Positions 5,424-13,932 of a stretch of 19,930 bases of DNA are shown here, one piece after another. Each line of letters starts with the position of its first letter. Within the stretch, counting starts at the first letter, position 1. This DNA is from Anaerolineales bacterium (GTDB taxonomy: Bacteria; Chloroflexota; Anaerolineae; Anaerolineales; UBA6663). The DNA lies in contig JAEURM010000010.1 of NCBI GenBank assembly GCA_016789245.1, forward strand, positions 1-19,930. Direction: 5' to 3'. The translations under genes and the position numbers were made by a program. Below the pieces are notes generated by a model. That model was not told where the DNA came from, searched no databases, and saw only the letters and a list, made by a program, of their open reading frames with translations.

Positions 5424-5425
5424 GG

Positions 5426-5489
5426 CTCTCGCGCTAAGCACGCAAAGACCGCAAAGTCTTCTTAGCGAGCTTAGCCTTCTTGGCGAGAG
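5426..5489. repeat. Complex dyad with TTTGCG/CTTAGCG units
   Basis: It begins 3 nt after the mttB1 stop codon. The outer arms CTCTCGC (5426-5432) and GCGAGAG (5483-5489), middle arms GCTAAGC (5433-5439) and GCTTAGC (5469-5475), and inner AAGAC/GTCTT (5445-5449/5456-5460) can form a nested hairpin. On the reverse strand it reads as tandem units around CTTTGCGG, CTTTGCGTG and CTTAGCGCG, related to those at 1452-1480. The rest of the gap up to 5570 shows only a Shine-Dalgarno before the next gene. Confidence 0.65.
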
Positions 5490-5570
5490 ATGACCACTTG
5501 ACTGGCACGGGTGATATTTGTCATTTGTGTATTTCCATACAATCCGTGTGCAGATAAAGAAGGATTAACT

Positions 5571-7251: not shown

Positions 7252-7346
7252 CGCCGCAAACTTCAGAAGTGCGCTCGGCAGAGGTGAACGCGAACGCTAA
7301 GCCGATAAGCTGTATAAGATTAGTTCTTAGCTCATCTTACGCAAAT

Positions 7347-7412
7347 CGTCACTCCCGCGAAAGCGGGAGTCCACCATTTAGGTAATGGATACCCGCTTTC
7401 GCGGGTATGACG
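7347..7412. repeat. 66-bp double hairpin of the CCCGCGAAAGCGGG type
   Basis: The 27-nt arms 7347-7373 and 7386-7412 match at 23 of 27 positions around a 12-nt loop. Each arm itself contains the small palindrome CCCGCGAAAGCGGG (7354-7367 and its complement at 7392-7405). The four mismatches sit symmetrically on both sides of that core. This is the widespread CGTCATTCCCGCGAAAGCGGG-type intergenic repeat seen in many bacterial phyla. It sits in the 250-bp gap 7252-7501; the rest of that gap shows only a small GCGTT/AACGC dyad (7469-7484) and the Shine-Dalgarno of the next gene. Confidence 0.85.
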
Positions 7413-7501: not shown

Positions 7502-8680
7502 ATGACCACAACCACAGCAGACATTATCATCATTGGCGGCGGGATTAATGGCGCTAGCACGGCGTTTAATTTAGCCAACTTGGGCGCGAAGAACGTAGTC
7601 TTACTGGAGCGCAACGATGTGTGCTCCGGCGGCACGGCGAAATCCTGCGCCATCTGCCGCACGCACTACTCCATTGAGCCGAACCGCCTGCACGCTGTGG
7701 AAAGCCTGAAGATTTTTGAGAACTTTCAAGATGTGGTGGGCGGCTCGGCGGGCTTTCACCGCACCGGCTACATCATCCTTGGGCCGGAGAGCCACCGCGC
7801 GCCCATGCTGGACGTATTCAAAGCGCAAAATGCGCTCGGCATTGATACCGCCGTGCTGAGCAAAGCCGAAGCGCAGAAAATTCACCCCCTGCTCAACTTA
7901 GATGATATTGAAGTGATTGGCTACGATACGCGCGCCGGTTACTGTGACCCGCACTTGGCCACCAACACCTATGTGAGCCGCGCCAAAGAGTTGGGCGTGA
8001 ACATCCGCACCAGCACGCCGGTAACGAAGGTGGAAGTGGTGGGCAACATTAAGCGTTTACACACGCCGCACGGCATTTTTGAAACACCTACGCTGGTGGT
8101 CATTGCTGGCCCGTGGACGAATTCGCTCACCGAGCAAATCGGTGTGAAGTTTCCGTACGAAATTAGCCGCCACAAAGTGATTACGCTCAAAATCAATCAG
8201 CCGTATGATATTGATTGGCCCACAGTGAAAGACCTGACCACGGCGGACAAAATTTACTTCCGCCCGGAAACCGGCGGCGTGGTGTTGGTGGGCACCGGTG
8301 ACCACGGTGACCCGATTGAAGACGCGGATACATTGCTTGACAATCAAGTGAATATGGAACATGTGGAGCACATCAGCAGTTTGATTGCCCACCGCATGCC
8401 GGCCTTCCAGAATTCACAATACACAGCAGGTTGGACTGGCCCGTACGATATTACGCCGGACTGGAACCCGATTTTGGGCGCAGTGCCGGGCCACGAAGGC
8501 GTGTTTGTGGGCGTGGGCTTTAGCGGCCACGGCTTTAAGATGGCACCCACCGTGGGTGAATCTTTAGCACAGACGGTGCTGGACCTGCCGGTACGCGTTT
8601 CTATTGAGGCCTACAGCCCCAGCCGTTTTGCCGAGGGCAAGGCTCTGCACGGCGCGTACGGCATTGGCTCCATTTCTTAA
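7502..8680 (+). CDS. FAD-dependent oxidoreductase, sarcosine oxidase beta/dimethylglycine oxidase-like (DAO family)
   Basis: A 392-residue DAO-fold enzyme. The FAD-binding loop is IIGGGINGAS (10-19), with Glu36 ending the second strand (VVLLERND), then GGTAKSCAICRTHYS (43-57), the signature seen in SoxB-like enzymes. The C-terminal part has the substrate and flavin segment AGWTGPYDITPDWNPILG and VGFSGHGFKMAPTVGE. It is a different subfamily from the MSOX-like gene at 1500: it lacks the Cys315-type covalent flavin motif, and no alpha, gamma or delta subunit gene of heterotetrameric sarcosine oxidase is near. Expected chemistry is dehydrogenation of an N-methyl or secondary amine to an imine, possibly releasing formaldehyde. 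ATG 7502 follows CAGGA at 7488-7492. The stop codon is 3 nt before mttB2, so the two are almost certainly co-transcribed and translationally coupled. Substrate unknown. Confidence 0.87.
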   Translation: MTTTTADIIIIGGGINGASTAFNLANLGAKNVVLLERNDVCSGGTAKSCAICRTHYSIEPNRLHAVESLKIFENFQDVVGGSAGFHRTGYIILGPESHRAPMLDVFKAQNALGIDTAVLSKAEAQKIHPLLNLDDIEVIGYDTRAGYCDPHLATNTYVSRAKELGVNIRTSTPVTKVEVVGNIKRLHTPHGIFETPTLVVIAGPWTNSLTEQIGVKFPYEISRHKVITLKINQPYDIDWPTVKDLTTADKIYFRPETGGVVLVGTGDHGDPIEDADTLLDNQVNMEHVEHISSLIAHRMPAFQNSQYTAGWTGPYDITPDWNPILGAVPGHEGVFVGVGFSGHGFKMAPTVGESLAQTVLDLPVRVSIEAYSPSRFAEGKALHGAYGIGSIS

Positions 8681-8683
8681 ACC

Positions 8684-10204
8684 ATGAGCACCCGAGAACG
8701 CCGCCGCGAGCGCACGCCCCGTAAGCAAGCCAACATCTCACCGGCCGGTTTGGAAGGTGGCCGCTACCAGCCATTAACTGAAGCCGAAGTTCACCGCATC
8801 CACGAAGCGGCGCTGAGCGTGTTGGAACGCACCGGTGTAGAGATTGTGGAATCTGAGTGCCGCCAAATCATGGTGAACGCTGGGGCCAAATTGGATGCGG
8901 CCCACAACCGTGTGTACATTCCGCGCCAGATGGTGGAAGCGGCGCTGAAAGTGGCGAACCGCGATGTGGTGTTGTACAGCCGCGATGGCAAAACGGATTT
9001 GCACCTGCGCGGCAAACGCGTGCACTTAGGCACCGGCGGCGCGGCGGTGCTGGTGCTGGATTTAGAAACCGGCCACACGCGGCACAGCCAACTGCGGGAT
9101 ATCTATGATATTGGCCGGCTGGTAGAAACGCTGGATAACATTCACTTTTACATCCGCCCGGTGGTAGCGCGGGATGTTTCCAACGACGAGATTGATATCA
9201 ACACGTTTTACGCGGCGCTCACAGCCACCAACAAACATGTAATGGGCGGCTGTTACTTCGCCAGCAAAGTAGCGGAGCTAAAAGAATTAGGGGTGATGAT
9301 GGCCGGCAGTGAAGAAGCCTTCCTCGCGCGGCCTTTCTTCTCGCTCAACTTGGGCTACATGATTAGCCCACTGCGGTTTGCGGCGGAAACAATAGAAACG
9401 GTAATTGTGGCCGTGCGCGCCGGATTGCCCATCGCCCTCGTCTCCGCCCCCCTCAGTGGCGCCACGGCGCCCGCTTCGCTCATCGGTACTTTGGTGCAAT
9501 CCATCGCCGAAGAATTGGCCGGCATCACTTTCGTGCAACTGCTCCGGCCCGGCCACCCCATGCTCATGGGTTCCATGCCGCTGGTAACAGATTTGCGCAC
9601 CGGCGCGATGATTGGCGGTTGTGCTGAGCTGGCGCTGATGAACGCCGCCGCCGCGCAGATGAGCCACTTCTACGGTTTGCCGCTGTACAACTCCTGCGGC
9701 ATCACGGAAAGCAAAGTACCAGATGTGCAAGCCGGTTTTGAGAAGGGCCTCACCACCGCCGTTACCGCGCTGGCGGGCGCGCAATACAATCACCATGCGG
9801 CCGGCATGCTGGAAAGTTTGCTCTCGGTGGCGTATGAAAATTACGTGATTGATGATGATATTGGCGGCCAAGTGATGCGGCTGGTGCGCGGCTTAGAAGT
9901 GACGGACGAAACACTTTCGCTGGATGTGATTCACAACATTTGCACAGAAGGCCCCGGCCACTATTTGGGCCATGAGCAAACCATCTCGTTGATGAACAGT
10001 GAATACCACTACCCCCACACCGCAGACCGCACCACACGCCAAAGCTGGGAAGAAGCGGGTGCGCTGGATATGCGCGAGAAGGCCAAACGCAAAGCGCGTG
10101 AAATTCTCAAAACCAACTACCCAGAAATTATTTCTGCCGAAACCGATGCGCGGATCCGTGAGCGATTTAAGATATTGTTGCCAAGGGAAGTGATGCACTC
10201 ATAA
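8684..10204 (+). CDS. MttB-superfamily (trimethylamine methyltransferase-like) protein 2, non-pyrrolysine
   Basis: A 506-residue protein, a typical length for the superfamily. After a basic N-terminus (1-16), homology runs from about residue 28 (RYQPLTEAEVHRIHEAAL) through the barrel. The best motif is GITESKVPDVQAGFE (339-353), followed by AAGMLESLLSVAYENYVIDD (372-391), both hallmark regions of MttB and of non-Pyl members such as MtgB. The reading frame has no internal TAG, so no pyrrolysine. Start ATG 8684 is 3 nt after the flavin oxidase stop codon and lacks its own Shine-Dalgarno, suggesting translational coupling. This pairing puts a methyl-removing and an amine-oxidising protein on one message. 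As for copy 1, no corrinoid protein gene is visible. The stop codon TAA (10202-10204) directly abuts the left octamer array of the four-helix-bundle cassette. Confidence 0.87.
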   Translation: MSTRERRRERTPRKQANISPAGLEGGRYQPLTEAEVHRIHEAALSVLERTGVEIVESECRQIMVNAGAKLDAAHNRVYIPRQMVEAALKVANRDVVLYSRDGKTDLHLRGKRVHLGTGGAAVLVLDLETGHTRHSQLRDIYDIGRLVETLDNIHFYIRPVVARDVSNDEIDINTFYAALTATNKHVMGGCYFASKVAELKELGVMMAGSEEAFLARPFFSLNLGYMISPLRFAAETIETVIVAVRAGLPIALVSAPLSGATAPASLIGTLVQSIAEELAGITFVQLLRPGHPMLMGSMPLVTDLRTGAMIGGCAELALMNAAAAQMSHFYGLPLYNSCGITESKVPDVQAGFEKGLTTAVTALAGAQYNHHAAGMLESLLSVAYENYVIDDDIGGQVMRLVRGLEVTDETLSLDVIHNICTEGPGHYLGHEQTISLMNSEYHYPHTADRTTRQSWEEAGALDMREKAKRKAREILKTNYPEIISAETDARIRERFKILLPREVMHS

Positions 10205-10236
10205 GCAGGTGGGCAGGTGAGCGGGTGCGCAAGTGA
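10205..10236. repeat. Left octamer array (4 units, GCAGGTGA type)
   Basis: Four consecutive 8-nt units: GCAGGTGG, GCAGGTGA, GCGGGTGC, GCAAGTGA. It begins at the first base after the mttB2 stop codon. Part of it (from 10217) pairs with the right array. Confidence 0.8.
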
Positions 10237-10269
10237 GAAATGAAAAAGGATATACTTCTGAAAACATTC

Positions 10270-10281
10270 AGGAGGCCTCCT
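10270..10281 (+). promoter_or_regulatory. Shine-Dalgarno inside a perfect 12-bp palindrome
   Basis: AGGAGGCCTCCT is a perfect palindrome whose first half is the strong Shine-Dalgarno that fixes the start of the four-helix-bundle gene at ATG 10282. Its second half is anti-Shine-Dalgarno-like and could pair with the first half of another transcript, or locally with a shortened stem, lowering translation. A regulatory role is inferred. Confidence 0.5.
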
Positions 10282-10674
10282 ATGAACCGCAAACCGATAA
10301 AAACCCATCGTGATCTTGATGTGTACAAAATGGCCTTTGACGCTTCTATGCAGATTTTTAGATTGAGCAAGAAGTTTCCCACCGAAGAACGTTATTCCCT
10401 CACTGACCAAATTCGGCGTTCATCCCGCTCGGTAGCCGCTAATTTGGCGGAAGCATGGCGCAAGCGCCGCTATGAGAATAGTTTTCTAAACAAACTCACG
10501 GATTCTGAAGCCGAAGCCGCCGAGACTCAAACGTGGCTTGAGTTCGCTGTTGAATGTGAATACCTAGAACGCAAATCAGCCCGTGAGCTTTACCGAGCTT
10601 ACAATCAAATTATCGGCAAAATCGTTACCATGGTTAATCATCCTGAGCCGTGGATTTTGCAAAAGACCAAATAA
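10282..10674 (+). CDS. Four-helix-bundle protein (23S rRNA intervening-sequence/S23 family)
   Basis: A 130-residue protein. ATG 10282 is chosen because AGGAGG lies 6 nt upstream and because family members start just before the RDLDVY motif; an in-frame ATG at 10240 would add 14 unrelated residues. Family hallmarks are HRDLDVYKMAFDASMQIF, the strongly conserved FPTEERYSLTDQIRRSSRSV followed by AANLAEAW, and the later WLEFAVECEYL. This is the fold of proteins encoded in 23S rRNA intervening sequences; DGR accessory proteins (Avd) share it. The surface is rich in arginine and lysine, consistent with nucleic-acid binding, but the function is not established. It interrupts the metabolic operon, has lower GC than its neighbours, and is enclosed by inverted octamer arrays. 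No reverse transcriptase or template/variable repeat is visible, so a DGR is not indicated here. Confidence 0.88.
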   Translation: MNRKPIKTHRDLDVYKMAFDASMQIFRLSKKFPTEERYSLTDQIRRSSRSVAANLAEAWRKRRYENSFLNKLTDSEAEAAETQTWLEFAVECEYLERKSARELYRAYNQIIGKIVTMVNHPEPWILQKTK

Positions 10675-10680
10675 CACAGC

Positions 10681-10712
10681 TTCTCACTTTCTCACCCGCT
10701 CACTTTCACACC
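10681..10712. repeat. Right octamer array, inverted relative to the left one
   Basis: Consecutive 8-nt units TTCTCACT, TTCTCACC, CGCTCACT, TTCACACC; on the reverse strand they read as GTGAG-type octamers like those at 10205-10236. The segment 10681-10703 is complementary to 10217-10239 with two mismatches. It ends just before the Shine-Dalgarno of the AOR gene (GGAG at about 10721). Confidence 0.75.
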
Positions 10713-10729
10713 AGCCCCTTGGAGAATCT

Positions 10730-12622
10730 ATGCTCGCCGGTATACACAAAAAAATCCTGCACATCAACCTTAGCACCGGTAATATTCACGTTGAAAAGCC
10801 GCCGGAAGAATTCTACCGCTTGCTGGTGGGTGGCCGTGCGTTAGTGGCCTACCTGCTTTTGCGTGATTTACCCGCCAACACGGATGCCCTCAGCCCGGAG
10901 AACTTGCTGATTTTTGCGCCCGGCATCATGCAAGGCACGAGCTTGCCCGGCGCGGGGCGGCACGGCGTGGGTGGCAAAAGCCCACTCACGGGCGCGATTG
11001 GCTCCAGCGAGGCGGGCGGCTGGTGGGGGCATGAATTTAAGCGCACCGGTTACGATGCGTTAGTGATACGCGGGCGGGCGGAGAAGCCCGTGTATGTGTG
11101 GATCAAAGATCAACAGGTAGAAATCCGTTCTGCTGAACACTTGTGGGGGCAAGAAACATGGCCCACCGAAGTGGCGCTGAAACAAGAAATTGGCGACGAA
11201 AAAATTCGCGTGGCGCAAATTGGCCCAGCCGGTGAAAACCAAGTGCTGTACGCCGCCGTGATTCACGATATCAACCGTGCGGCGGGCCGCAACGGCTTAG
11301 GCGCGGTGATGGGCAGTAAAAATCTCAAAGCCGTAGCCGTGCGCGGCACCACCAACGTGCCCGTAGCCACCCGCCCGCGCGTCACTCAAGTTTCCAAATG
11401 GCTGGGCGAGAATTACAAAACATTGGCTTCGTGGGCCACCGCGCCCGGCCGTGGCACACAAGACTCTTTGGCGTGGTGGGGGCACCTCGGCGCACTGCCC
11501 ACGCAAAACTTCGGCCTGCCCCTGTGGGATGAACGCGAGCACTTGAGCGGCGAACGCAACTACGAAATGTTCTTCAAAGACCGCGATACCTGCCAAGCCT
11601 GCCCGATTGCTTGCAAACAAGTATTTGAACATGCCAGTGATAACCCATACCAAGTTTTGCGGCCAGAGTATGGTGGGCCGGAGTATGAAGGCATGGCCGC
11701 GTTGGGCGCTATGTGCCGCGTGAGTGATAACTTGGCCGTGTGCAAAGCCGCCGAGTTGTGCAACGCCAACGGGCTAGATGTAATTTCCACCGGAAGCTCC
11801 ATTGCCTTTGCCATGGAAGCTTTTGAGCGCGGCATCATCACAGAAAAGGATACCGGCGGTTTGGCATATCGCTGGGGAGATGGGGAATTGCTGGTGAAAT
11901 CGGTTGAGATGGTGGCGCGGCGGGAAGGGTTTGGCGCGGTGTTAGCGGACGGCGTGGCTCGCATGAGCGAACGTTTTGGCCCGGCCACCGCTGACTTTAA
12001 CTTGACGGTGAAGAAGCAAGAACTGCCCATGCATGAGCCGCGCTTAAAGCAGGCATTGGGCGTGGGCTATGCCGTGGCCCCCGTAGGCGCAGACCATATG
12101 ATGAACATGCACGATACCGATATTGCCTCGGAAGGCGAAGGCTTAAACCGCGTCAACTCCGTGCTGGAAAACAAAATTGGGCCGCAGAAGCCGGGCGACT
12201 TGAACGAAGATAAACTGCGCGCCTTCCACGCCGAAGTCAATTGGATGCACTTTCAGGATTGCGCCATCAACTGCCACTTTTATCCGTACCGCTATGAACA
12301 CCTTGCCAGCGCGCTCTCTGGCGTAACAGGTGAAGAGTTTAGCGTGCAAGATATTCTCAACGTGGGTGCGCGCGCGCAAACGCTCTGCCGCCTGTTTAAC
12401 TTGCGCGAAGGTTTTACAGCGGATGATGACAAACTCCCCAAGCGCGTGATGAAGGCGTTTGAAAGCGGCCCGTTGAAAAATGTGGCCATTAACGAAGATG
12501 CTTTTGAATGGGCCAAGCGCCGCTACTATGAATTGATGCAGTGGGATGTAGAAACCGGCGTGCCCACCCCTGCCTGCCTACGTGATTTAGACTTAACCGA
12601 TTTATTGCAATTTACACGCTGA
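10730..12622 (+). CDS. Tungsten-containing aldehyde:ferredoxin oxidoreductase (AOR family)
   Basis: A 630-residue protein from ATG 10730 (Shine-Dalgarno TTGGAG just upstream); the frame is open back to 10583 but that part overlaps the four-helix-bundle gene in another frame. It covers all three AOR domains. The N-terminal pterin-binding region shows GRHGVGGKSPLTGAIG (76-91) and AGRNGLGAVMGSKNLKAVA (185-203). The 4Fe-4S motif is Cys288, Cys291, Cys295 (CQACPIAC), the same numbers as in the Pyrococcus furiosus enzyme, with Cys511 or Cys515 as candidates for the fourth ligand. GARAQTLCRLFNLREGF (546-562) is the typical C-terminal signature. AORs oxidise aldehydes to acids in the cytosol and reduce ferredoxin. 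Here it could remove an aldehyde from the amine pathway. It is normally oxygen-sensitive, which is odd next to presumed O2-using oxidases. The exact aldehyde is unknown. Confidence 0.93.
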   Translation: MLAGIHKKILHINLSTGNIHVEKPPEEFYRLLVGGRALVAYLLLRDLPANTDALSPENLLIFAPGIMQGTSLPGAGRHGVGGKSPLTGAIGSSEAGGWWGHEFKRTGYDALVIRGRAEKPVYVWIKDQQVEIRSAEHLWGQETWPTEVALKQEIGDEKIRVAQIGPAGENQVLYAAVIHDINRAAGRNGLGAVMGSKNLKAVAVRGTTNVPVATRPRVTQVSKWLGENYKTLASWATAPGRGTQDSLAWWGHLGALPTQNFGLPLWDEREHLSGERNYEMFFKDRDTCQACPIACKQVFEHASDNPYQVLRPEYGGPEYEGMAALGAMCRVSDNLAVCKAAELCNANGLDVISTGSSIAFAMEAFERGIITEKDTGGLAYRWGDGELLVKSVEMVARREGFGAVLADGVARMSERFGPATADFNLTVKKQELPMHEPRLKQALGVGYAVAPVGADHMMNMHDTDIASEGEGLNRVNSVLENKIGPQKPGDLNEDKLRAFHAEVNWMHFQDCAINCHFYPYRYEHLASALSGVTGEEFSVQDILNVGARAQTLCRLFNLREGFTADDDKLPKRVMKAFESGPLKNVAINEDAFEWAKRRYYELMQWDVETGVPTPACLRDLDLTDLLQFTR

Positions 12623-12635
12623 AAACGTTAATAGA

Positions 12636-12686
12636 ACGCAGATAGCGCAGTTTTGCTAATCAGCGTTCATCTGCGCCTATCTGCGT
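12636..12686. repeat. Dyad with ATCTGCGT tandem units
   Basis: The arms ACGCAGATAGCGCAG (12636-12650) and CTGCGCCTATCTGCGT (12671-12686) pair with one bulged base. The right side continues as near-tandem 9-nt units CATCTGCGC, TATCTGCGT, CATCTGCGT (12669-12695). It lies in the 85-bp gap between the AOR and enolase-superfamily genes; no other signal is seen in that gap. Confidence 0.75.
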
Positions 12687-12707
12687 CATCTGCGTTTCAC
12701 AAGCCGC

Positions 12708-13835
12708 ATGAAAATAGACTCCATCGAAATTCGCCACTACCGCCTGCCACTTGACCCGCCTTTCAACGCCTCGTGGGACCCTAATCCACGCAAAACTTTT
12801 ACCAACACCGTTGTGCGCGTGACGGCGGGCGAGTACGAAGGCGTGGGTTCTGGTGATGCCATGCTGGGCTTTGTAGGCCATGAACATTTATTTATTGGCC
12901 AAGACCCGTTTACCATTGAGCGCCATGTGCGCATTTTGGATAACTTGCAATTTCACTATGGCCGGTGCTGGCCACTAGAAGTGGCGCTGTGGGATTTGAT
13001 GGGCAAGGCCAGCGGCCAGCCGGTGTGGAAATTGCTCGGCGGGCGGAGCAACCGCGTGCCGCTGTACGCCTCTTGTGGTGAGCGCAAACCAGCGGCTGAG
13101 CGCGCCGCTTCAGCCCAACAACTGCAAGCCCTCGGTTATCCCGCGCTCAAGATTCGGTTTCATGATGCCGATATCAAAAAAGATATTGCGGTGGTAGCCG
13201 CCACGCGGGAAGCTATTGGCAATGAAATGCACATTTTGGTAGATGCCAACCAAGGCTGGCAAATGCCGTGGGATGCCTCACCCACTTGGGATTTTAAAAC
13301 CGCGCTGTGGGTGGCCGATGCGTTGGCTGAGTTGGGCGTGTTTTGGCTGGAAGAGCCTTTGCACCGGCATGACTATGAAGGTTTGGCCAGCTTGCGCCGC
13401 CGCGCGAAACTGCGCATTGCGGGCGGCGAGGGTAACCGCGAGTACGCCGATTTGCGGCAATATCTAAAACACGGTTCGTTTGATGTGTACCAGCCAGATG
13501 TGGTGTGGTGCACGGGCGTTTTGCGCGCGCGGCAGTTAGCTGGTGAAGTGCAAGCGGAAGGTTGCATTTACACGCCGCACACTTGGGGTGATGGTTTAGT
13601 GTTGCTGGCCAACTTGCACGTGTGCGCCGCGCTCTCCACTGCGCCGTTTGTAGAATTTCCCTTTGACCCGCCCAACTGGACGCCTGAACGCCGCGATTTC
13701 ATTCTCCCCGCCCCCCTTCTCCCCAGCGGCCCCGGCTACATTGATTTGCCTGAGGCGCCCGGTTTAGGCGTAAACATTAACTGGGAAGCACTTGAACACC
13801 GGCGCGTTGATTCCGGTACAATGAAAGCCAGTTAA
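12708..13835 (+). CDS. Enolase-superfamily protein, mandelate racemase subgroup
   Basis: A 375-residue protein with the two-domain enolase-superfamily layout: an N-terminal capping domain (about 1-120) and a TIM barrel. Predicted Mg2+ ligands are Asp179 (VDANQGW), Glu215 or Glu216 (LEEP) and Glu241 (GGEGN). On the second barrel strand the acid/base motif is Lys148-Ile-Arg150 (K-x-R rather than the common K-x-K). On later strands Asp264 (YQPD) and His291 (TPHTWGDG) form the Asp-His dyad typical of the mandelate racemase subgroup; Glu316 in VEFPFD is the late conserved acid. These enzymes remove the alpha proton of a carboxylate and then racemise or dehydrate it, usually an acid sugar; betaine epimerases of hydroxyproline exist in the superfamily but are of the K-x-K type. 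Start ATG 12708 has no Shine-Dalgarno. Substrate unknown. Confidence 0.87.
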   Translation: MKIDSIEIRHYRLPLDPPFNASWDPNPRKTFTNTVVRVTAGEYEGVGSGDAMLGFVGHEHLFIGQDPFTIERHVRILDNLQFHYGRCWPLEVALWDLMGKASGQPVWKLLGGRSNRVPLYASCGERKPAAERAASAQQLQALGYPALKIRFHDADIKKDIAVVAATREAIGNEMHILVDANQGWQMPWDASPTWDFKTALWVADALAELGVFWLEEPLHRHDYEGLASLRRRAKLRIAGGEGNREYADLRQYLKHGSFDVYQPDVVWCTGVLRARQLAGEVQAEGCIYTPHTWGDGLVLLANLHVCAALSTAPFVEFPFDPPNWTPERRDFILPAPLLPSGPGYIDLPEAPGLGVNINWEALEHRRVDSGTMKAS

Positions 13836-13859
13836 CCACAAAGCAACTCAAAGCAATCT

Positions 13860-13893
13860 GAAGGCACACGAAGTTCTCCCTTCGTGTGCCTTC
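13860..13893. repeat. Perfect 14-bp-stem hairpin with CTTCGTG units
   Basis: GAAGGCACACGAAG (13860-13873) and CTTCGTGTGCCTTC (13880-13893) are exact complements around a 6-nt loop, 24 nt after the enolase-superfamily gene. Related units continue to the right (TTCGTGAAT, TTAGTGTAG, CTTAGTGGG, CTTCGTGG, up to 13928), reaching the start of the transporter gene. It could end transcription of the upstream genes, but only TTC with no T-run follows. Confidence 0.8.
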
Positions 13894-13932
13894 GTGAATA
13901 TTTAGTGTAGCTTAGTGGGTCTTCGTGGAAAA

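What the first reader, a model, noticed from the sequence alone, without database searches (positions are those of the whole stretch)
10205..10712. IVS-like cassette: four-helix-bundle gene enclosed by inverted octamer arrays, inserted in a metabolic operon
The gene belongs to the family found in 23S rRNA intervening sequences, where the ORF sits in a loop closed by a stem. Here a protein-coding operon carries the same design: 8-nt units (GCAGGTGA type) on the left and inverted units on the right, with 23-nt arms matching at 21 positions by hand alignment. The boundaries fit exactly between the mttB2 stop codon and the AOR Shine-Dalgarno, and the gene is AT-richer than its neighbours. This suggests a non-autonomous mobile unit or RNA-structured cassette that inserts into gaps without harming the flanking genes. 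The octamer arrays may be its target, its ends, or its recognition RNA.
Basis: partly seen in the sequence, partly recalled or inferred. Interest (0 to 1): 0.8.

Follow-up and report, generated by a model that had tools for sequence, protein, structure and literature searches.

The report
Mobile hairpin cassette between operon genes
A small gene related to those found inside bacterial ribosomal RNA sits between two metabolic genes, bracketed by mirror-image rows of short repeats; the same gene-plus-repeats package occurs in many bacteria at places where relatives have nothing, so it behaves like a tiny mobile element of a little-recognised kind.

Summary
The pattern is general. Counting one gene per genomic site, 95 of 128 PF05635 genes have complementary flanks, against 1.1% of 183 neighbouring ORFs and 0 of 37 PIN-domain ORF calls. 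Units of 7-9 nt differ between most copies even within one genome, yet own arms tend to pair best. Unit type follows protein similarity (Mantel p 0.001). Mobility shows by comparison: two Nostoc-family sites and the window's own mttB-AOR junction occur bare, filled by different cassettes, or with gene-less arrays. At the window's junction one relative carries a PDDEXK_3 (GxxExxY) gene between the same kind of arms; that family repeats the design. Best reading: an IVS-like mobile hairpin cassette in protein operons, the arms being its ends. Insertion mode, RNase III processing and the protein's role are inferred. Against: a cyanobacterium sampled is full of such arrays without the gene, array density does not follow gene number, and arms do not measurably co-evolve after insertion.

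The parts
10205..10239 (+). left arm: degenerate octamer array GCAGGTGG/GCAGGTGA/GCGGGTGC/GCAAGTGA
10681..10715 (+). right arm: inverted counterpart of the left array, 83% complementary over 35 nt
10282..10674 (+). four-helix-bundle (PF05635, 23S rRNA IVP) gene, 130 aa; longer ORF from 10240 possible
10270..10281 (+). palindrome AGGAGGCCTCCT holding a strong Shine-Dalgarno directly before ATG 10282, inside the loop
   Evidence: read directly
8684..10204 (+). upstream gene mttB2 (MTTB family); its stop codon abuts the left arm
10730..12622 (+). downstream gene, aldehyde ferredoxin oxidoreductase; its start lies 14 nt after the right arm
12623..12707 (+). gene-less inverted array pair (unit ACGCAGAT, as around PDDEXK_3 genes) right after AOR; related element, not part of the cassette
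   Evidence: (z -4.7), compare L233

Best explanation
It is a small mobile cassette of the rRNA intervening-sequence (IVS) type living in a protein operon. The two inverted arrays are its ends and travel with the gene. When transcribed, the arms pair into a stem that puts the four-helix gene in the loop, with its own ribosome-binding site inside. The cassette settles at operon junctions, where it leaves the upstream stop and downstream start usable. Likely but not shown: RNase III cuts the stem, as it does in rRNA; and the encoded Avd-like four-helix protein binds the hairpin of its own repeat type and helps it copy or insert, using host enzymes. Gene-less array pairs would be derivatives, and PDDEXK_3 cassettes a second cargo type of the same design.
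For: SHOWN: complementary flanks at 95 of 128 sites against 1.1% of 183 neighbour ORFs and 0 of 37 PIN ORF calls. Within one genome own arms pair better than chance pairing (G096, 14 genes of 22 copies, own partner best in 7, permutation p 5e-5; G046, 7 of 19 copies, own partner best in 6, p 3.5e-4). Unit similarity follows protein similarity (122 cassettes, Spearman 0.57, Mantel p 0.001). Site 1: of 19 loci with both flanks, 4 carry cassette type 1, 7 type 2 (one with a broken frame), 8 no gene. Site 2: 13 loci without the gene, three with only 15 nt between the genes, two with gene-less inverted arrays; two different cassettes fill it in others. Window junction, 7 loci: 3 bare, 2 with a gene-less single array, 1 PDDEXK_3 cassette, 1 other gene without arrays. 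Of 116 listed gene-only DNA matches to the site-2 locus, 1 runs past the left arm end and 1 past the right. The protein is under purifying selection (dN/dS 0 to 0.27 in 13 scorable of 14 pairs). LITERATURE: the Coxiella 23S IVS has a 28-bp stem, an S23 ORF, RNase III excision and tandem heptamers before the ORF (PMC4990558, abstract and passages). INFERRED: RNase III processing in mRNA, protein binding to arms, insertion chemistry.
Against: Arrays without the gene are very common in a Calothrix sample (124 per 400 kb; 34 have an inverted partner, of which 1 is near the gene). Array density does not rise with gene number over 34 samples (Spearman 0.19, p 0.28; 0.02 after genome size). Arms of cassettes at the same site do not clearly pair better with their own partner than with the other's (14 better, 10 worse, 1 equal). 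No clear target-site duplication was seen. Co-directional orientation (59 against 8) is about what ordinary genes show (253 against 47). 33 of 128 sites score below the threshold. In G096 only 4 of 14 genes reach it, and three copies there share a GTGTCA-like unit. About half of the gene-only matches end inside the gene, so arms often diverge. The unit-protein link could be mere linkage within clades: below 60% protein identity unit similarity is flat at about 0.1.
Confidence: 0.65

Rival explanations
1. The arrays are ordinary short tandem repeats (STRR-like) that slip and spread in intergenic DNA; the four-helix gene is bracketed by them because small intergenic genes collect them.
For: Calothrix holds 124 arrays per 400 kb, nearly all away from the gene; genomes with no PF05635 match still have arrays; inverted array pairs also enclose ordinary genes in cyanobacteria.
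Against: Neighbour ORFs in the same loci show complementary flanks in 1.1% of 183 cases and PIN ORF calls in 0 of 37. In an Anaerolineae-class genome arrays are rare (3 per 400 kb), yet both PF05635 genes in that sample have arms at the threshold (30 and 32). Own arms pair better than other arms of the same genome.
Confidence: 0.12
2. A gene-less mobile hairpin is the true element, moved by an unknown host enzyme; the four-helix and PDDEXK_3 genes are passengers captured between its arms.
For: Gene-less inverted pairs occur at the very same junctions (L180; L462, L473) and in the window at 12623-12707; two unrelated cargo families share the design.
Against: The unit type follows the protein and the protein is under purifying selection, which suits a working part better than a passenger.
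Confidence: 0.25
3. It is a host regulatory hairpin of the operon (attenuator or mRNA-stability element) with an ordinary host gene in it.
For: Co-directional with the operon; strong stem; its ribosome-binding site sits in a palindrome.
Against: Not found at the same junction in the 7 relatives examined, present at unrelated sites in several phyla, repeat unit not conserved.
Confidence: 0.06
4. It is an accessory gene left from a diversity-generating retroelement (Avd relative).
For: Weak match to Avd and bAvd models; PF05635 is noted as Avd-like (PMC10053308, passages).
Against: Far below the Avd cut-off (25.1 of 80 bits); multi-copy with private arms.
Confidence: 0.03

Closest known systems
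23S rRNA intervening sequence (IVS) with S23 ORF, e.g. Coxiella burnetii (PMC4990558, abstract and passages seen)
   Same: Same protein family, ORF in the loop of a long terminal stem, heptamer repeats before the ORF; present or absent between relatives (recalled).
   Different: This one lies between protein genes, not in rRNA; arms are tandem arrays with units that differ from copy to copy; RNase III excision untested; its Shine-Dalgarno lies inside the loop, whereas the Coxiella paper says the region is removed on excision.
Heptamer arrays of Xanthomonas and Nostoc (Rehm 2015, PMC4692102, abstract and passages seen) and cyanobacterial STRRs
   Same: Short tandem arrays of 7 nt in gaps, partly as inverted pairs (70 and 75 cases in two Xanthomonas genomes).
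   Different: Described as G-quadruplex repeats, not as ends of a gene cassette; 'four helix' has no occurrence in its main text; supplements were not read.
Paired opposite-strand tandem repeats of Geobacter metallireducens (PMC2700814, passages seen)
   Same: Pairs of tandem 7-8-mers on opposite strands; class 2 unit TCTCCGTS is the complement of the ACACGGAG-like unit around PDDEXK_3 genes here.
   Different: Read there as global-regulator binding sites; 'S23' has no occurrence in its main text; supplements were not read.
REP elements and RAYT (Y1 transposase)
   Same: Small gene bracketed by hairpin repeats, with gene-less copies elsewhere (recalled; REP-like palindromes seen).
   Different: No Y1 transposase in the cassette; units differ from copy to copy; no dosage link.
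Avd of diversity-generating retroelements
   Same: Distant sequence relation.
   Different: Below the Avd cut-off.

Membership tests
PF05635 / TIGR02436 protein family | profile match above curated cut-off | tested here: met
   105.4 of 33.8 bits and 100.8 of 24 bits; solved relative 2gsc E 1e-10
23S rRNA IVS | inserted in a 23S rRNA helix | tested here: not met
   lies between mttB2 and AOR; no rRNA match up to E 1 in 8600-13000
23S rRNA IVS | terminal inverted repeats closing a stem | tested here: met
   (prediction only)
23S rRNA IVS | S23-type ORF in the loop | tested here: met
23S rRNA IVS | excision by RNase III | not testable with these tools
   needs RNA experiments; reported for Coxiella
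Insertion sequence or MITE | terminal inverted repeats of shared sequence among copies | tested here: not met
   units differ between most copies of one genome, though related within clades
Insertion sequence or MITE | target-site duplication | tested here: inconclusive
   none evident by eye at the sites; array edges blur the ends
Insertion sequence or MITE | presence/absence at orthologous sites | tested here: met
REP/RAYT | Y1 transposase gene | tested here: not met
   Pfam finds PF05635 and weak bAvd only
Diversity-generating retroelement Avd | Avd profile above cut-off | tested here: not met
   NF033474 25.1 of 80 bits; PF22296 27.8 of 40
Diversity-generating retroelement Avd | reverse transcriptase and template/variable repeats nearby | not tested
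   only 7 window ORFs were scanned with profiles; no reverse-transcriptase search was run

The most novel reading that the evidence does not exclude
PF05635 and PDDEXK_3 cassettes are two cargo versions of one unnamed class of mobile element whose ends are inverted tandem arrays with a unit private to the copy. The encoded protein recognises its own unit type, so that ends are defined by structure and repeat phase rather than by a fixed terminal sequence; ribosomal RNA IVSs and many gene-less heptamer arrays of bacteria are members or relics of it.
Probability: 0.35. Interest if true: 0.9.

Novelty: new variant of a known kind. Interest (0 to 1): 0.77.

Why it matters
It would give two very common gene families of unclear role (matches in 65 and 67 of 100 genomes of one class) a shared biology as mobile hairpin cassettes, tie the old puzzle of rRNA intervening sequences to elements in protein operons, and explain part of the unexplained heptamer arrays of bacteria. 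It makes a long-standing question testable: what the S23/IVS protein does, by asking whether it binds its own array.

Tried and rejected
Dosage model (protein as trans-acting spreader of arrays, like RAYT and REP): no support, Spearman 0.19, p 0.28, over 34 of 40 genome samples; 6 of the 40 were dropped because under 14 kb was obtained (gene counts). Compensatory evolution of arms after insertion: not supported, 14 better, 10 worse, 1 equal. Orientation bias as proof of RNA-level insertion: dropped, ordinary genes show nearly the same bias. DUF559 as a further cargo: 5 of 26 ORF calls with complementary flanks, of a different long-palindrome kind by eye; Y1 transposase: 7 of 33, REP-like palindromes. 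Content of inverted array pairs in the cyanobacterial samples: ordinary genes or nothing, except one PF05635 gene. Link of GxxExxY genes to reverse transcriptases: the one paper passage proved incidental. Rfam: only PYLIS_3 inside mttB2, 36.4 bits with cut-off 38. Plasmids: 41 of 72,556 records hold a relative of the window protein; not followed further. Prior print: in the listings and passages seen from the searches no paper linked PF05635 or PDDEXK_3 genes with flanking inverted arrays outside rRNA; long listings were seen in part, supplements were not open to me, and the library holds open-licence papers only and no preprints.

Full report
WHAT IS THERE. In the window, mttB2 ends at 10204 and an aldehyde ferredoxin oxidoreductase starts at 10730. 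Between them lies a PF05635 gene (105.4 bits, cut-off 33.8) bracketed by two inverted arrays, 10205-10239 and 10681-10715, 35 nt, 83% complementary. Of 476 positions scanned with the same geometry only the one spanning the cassette reaches this score. Most relatives align from about residue 15 of the longer ORF, so the gene most likely starts at 10282, right after AGGAGG inside the palindrome AGGAGGCCTCCT.

IS IT GENERAL. 80 relatives were fetched from the genome collection (467 candidates encoded a relative and the best 80 were kept), mostly cyanobacteria with some Chloroflexota, Planctomycetota, Verrucomicrobia, Cloacimonadota and Deltaproteobacteria. Flanks of 15 of the 80 were printed first. 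For 78 genes the complementarity of own flanks had median score 50, against 27 for other loci's flanks and 16 (maximum 27) for shuffles. With loci from 8 genomes and from 100 genomes of an Anaerolineae-type class added, 101 of 120 genes with full flanks (of 142 found) scored at least 30; neighbouring ORFs 1.1% of 183, cross-locus pairs 17.7% of 3580 (some loci there are duplicates). One gene per site cluster: 95 of 128, and 87 of 108 for strong family members (213 genes in 148 clusters, 20 clusters dropped for short flanks). A Planctomycetota-phylum set gave 13 of 26 ORF calls. Control: PIN domains 0 of 37 ORF calls. Among the 101, the left arm is G-richer than C in 93 and C-richer in 6; the commonest periods are 8, 7 and 14.

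PRIVATE UNITS. In G096 (14 of 22 copies looked at) and G046 (7 of 19) units differ between most copies, though three G096 copies share a GTGTCA-like unit. Own arms pair better than chance pairing within the genome (permutation p 5e-5 and 3.5e-4; own partner ranks first in 7 of 14 and 6 of 7). In G096 only 4 of 14 reach the score of 30, in G046 6 of 7. Over 122 cassettes unit similarity follows protein similarity (Spearman 0.57, Mantel p 0.001): the window's clade uses mostly purine-rich units of the GGGGAGCA kind, another clade GTCAGCA-like units, a third AT-rich units such as TTATCAG. Below 60% protein identity the unit similarity is flat (about 0.1), so the link lies within clades and could partly be plain linkage of gene and arms.

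MOBILITY. Site 1 (192 genomes of a Nostoc family searched; 30 loci examined, 19 with both flanks): 4 carry cassette type 1, 7 carry a different cassette type 2 (one with a broken frame), 8 have no gene. Of those 8, one is bare (26 nt between the flanks used), five have a single ATTACGA array, one another single array, one a gene-less inverted array pair beside an ATTACGA array. Site 2 (192 genomes; 32 loci examined, 19 with both flanks, two of them re-fetched copies): cassette A in L041, L046 and L457, a different cassette B in L062; 13 without the gene, of which three have 15 nt, three 33-42 nt, five a small ORF (read by eye), and two gene-less inverted arrays (L462, L473). The gene-less relative with the most similar flanks, L461 (87 and 90%), has the small ORF, so cassette A may have replaced it. 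The window's own junction (396 genomes searched, 230 with some match; 20 of the 30 loci examined, 7 with both genes): 90, 68 and 57 nt bare; two with a gene-less single array; one with a PDDEXK_3 gene (138.1 bits) between arms that match over about 45 nt; one with an unrelated gene without arrays. None of the 20 had a PF05635 gene. All 116 listed matches to the site-2 locus that covered the cassette only were tallied (the list was itself cut): 1 passes the left arm end by more than 10 nt and 1 the right; 43 begin and 39 end within about 15 nt of the arm ends, 26 do both; 68 begin and 69 end at or inside the gene, so in many copies the arms are too different to align.

SECOND CARGO. PDDEXK_3 (GxxExxY) genes occur in 67 of 100 genomes of the class; 14 of 35 ORF calls, which by my count of the listing are 12 of 28 distinct loci, have complementary arms, mostly with ACACGGAG/ACGCAGAT-like units. 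The window itself holds such a gene-less pair at 12623-12707.

WHAT SPEAKS AGAINST OR LIMITS IT. A Calothrix sample of 400 kb holds 124 arrays, 34 with an inverted partner, 1 of these near a PF05635 gene; an Anaerolineae-class sample holds 3 short arrays and no inverted pair by that stricter test, while its two PF05635 genes have arm scores of 30 and 32. Array density does not follow gene number. Cassettes at the same site do not show concerted arm evolution. Orientation (59 co-directional, 8 opposite, among 104 sites scored) hardly differs from ordinary genes (253 and 47). In the site comparisons the flanks are 69-100% identical, so exact ends and target duplications cannot be read.

HOW IT PROBABLY WORKS. 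Shown: inverted arms, units differing between copies, unit-protein link, presence/absence, gene plus arms as one block, purifying selection on the protein (dN/dS 0 to 0.27 in 13 scorable of 14 pairs). Inferred: the transcript folds into a stem with the gene in the loop; RNase III opens it as in the rRNA IVS of Coxiella, whose stem is 28 bp and which also has tandem heptamers before its S23 ORF (PMC4990558, passages); the four-helix protein acts on its own arm type. The insertion enzyme is unknown.

KNOWN OR NEW. IVSs with S23 ORFs in 23S rRNA are known. Heptamer arrays in inverted pairs were reported in Xanthomonas (PMC4692102) and paired opposite-strand tandem 7-8-mers in Geobacter metallireducens as presumed regulator sites (PMC2700814); TAACTGA arrays in Beggiatoaceae as presumed regulatory repeats (PMC4679880, passages). 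In what the searches named under Tried and rejected showed me, no paper joins these to the gene families. I therefore rate it a new variant of the IVS kind, possibly a class of its own.

Noticed in passing
window 12623-12707: Gene-less inverted array pair with ACGCAGAT-like units directly after the AOR stop; same unit type as around some PDDEXK_3 genes; folds with z -4.7.
   Followed up: partly
window 5424-5510: Hairpin with CGCAAAG-like repeats between the first mttB and the next gene; weaker fold, z -2.0.
   Followed up: partly
window 9701-9803: Match to Rfam PYLIS_3 (36.4 bits, cut-off 38, E 5e-5) inside mttB2, whose frame is open under the ordinary code.
   Followed up: no
window 7345-7410 and 13836-13914: Further intergenic hairpins (GCGAAAGCGGGAG type and a terminator-like CACACGAAG type) seen by eye.
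   Followed up: no
L007 and L079: Similar Nostoc flanks in which, by eye, the cassette lies in opposite orientation, with no right array in L079.
   Followed up: no
L121, L123, L126: Same site by flank similarity (pieces 80-95% identical); L126 has a different repeat unit in both arms and a more diverged gene, as if replaced.
   Followed up: partly
L326, L308, L329: DUF559 genes flanked by long palindromes of the gccctcacccc type, another possible gene-plus-hairpin unit.
   Followed up: no
G593, G605: Genomes of the Planctomycetota-phylum set with 25 and 21 PF05635 matches at low scores.
   Followed up: no
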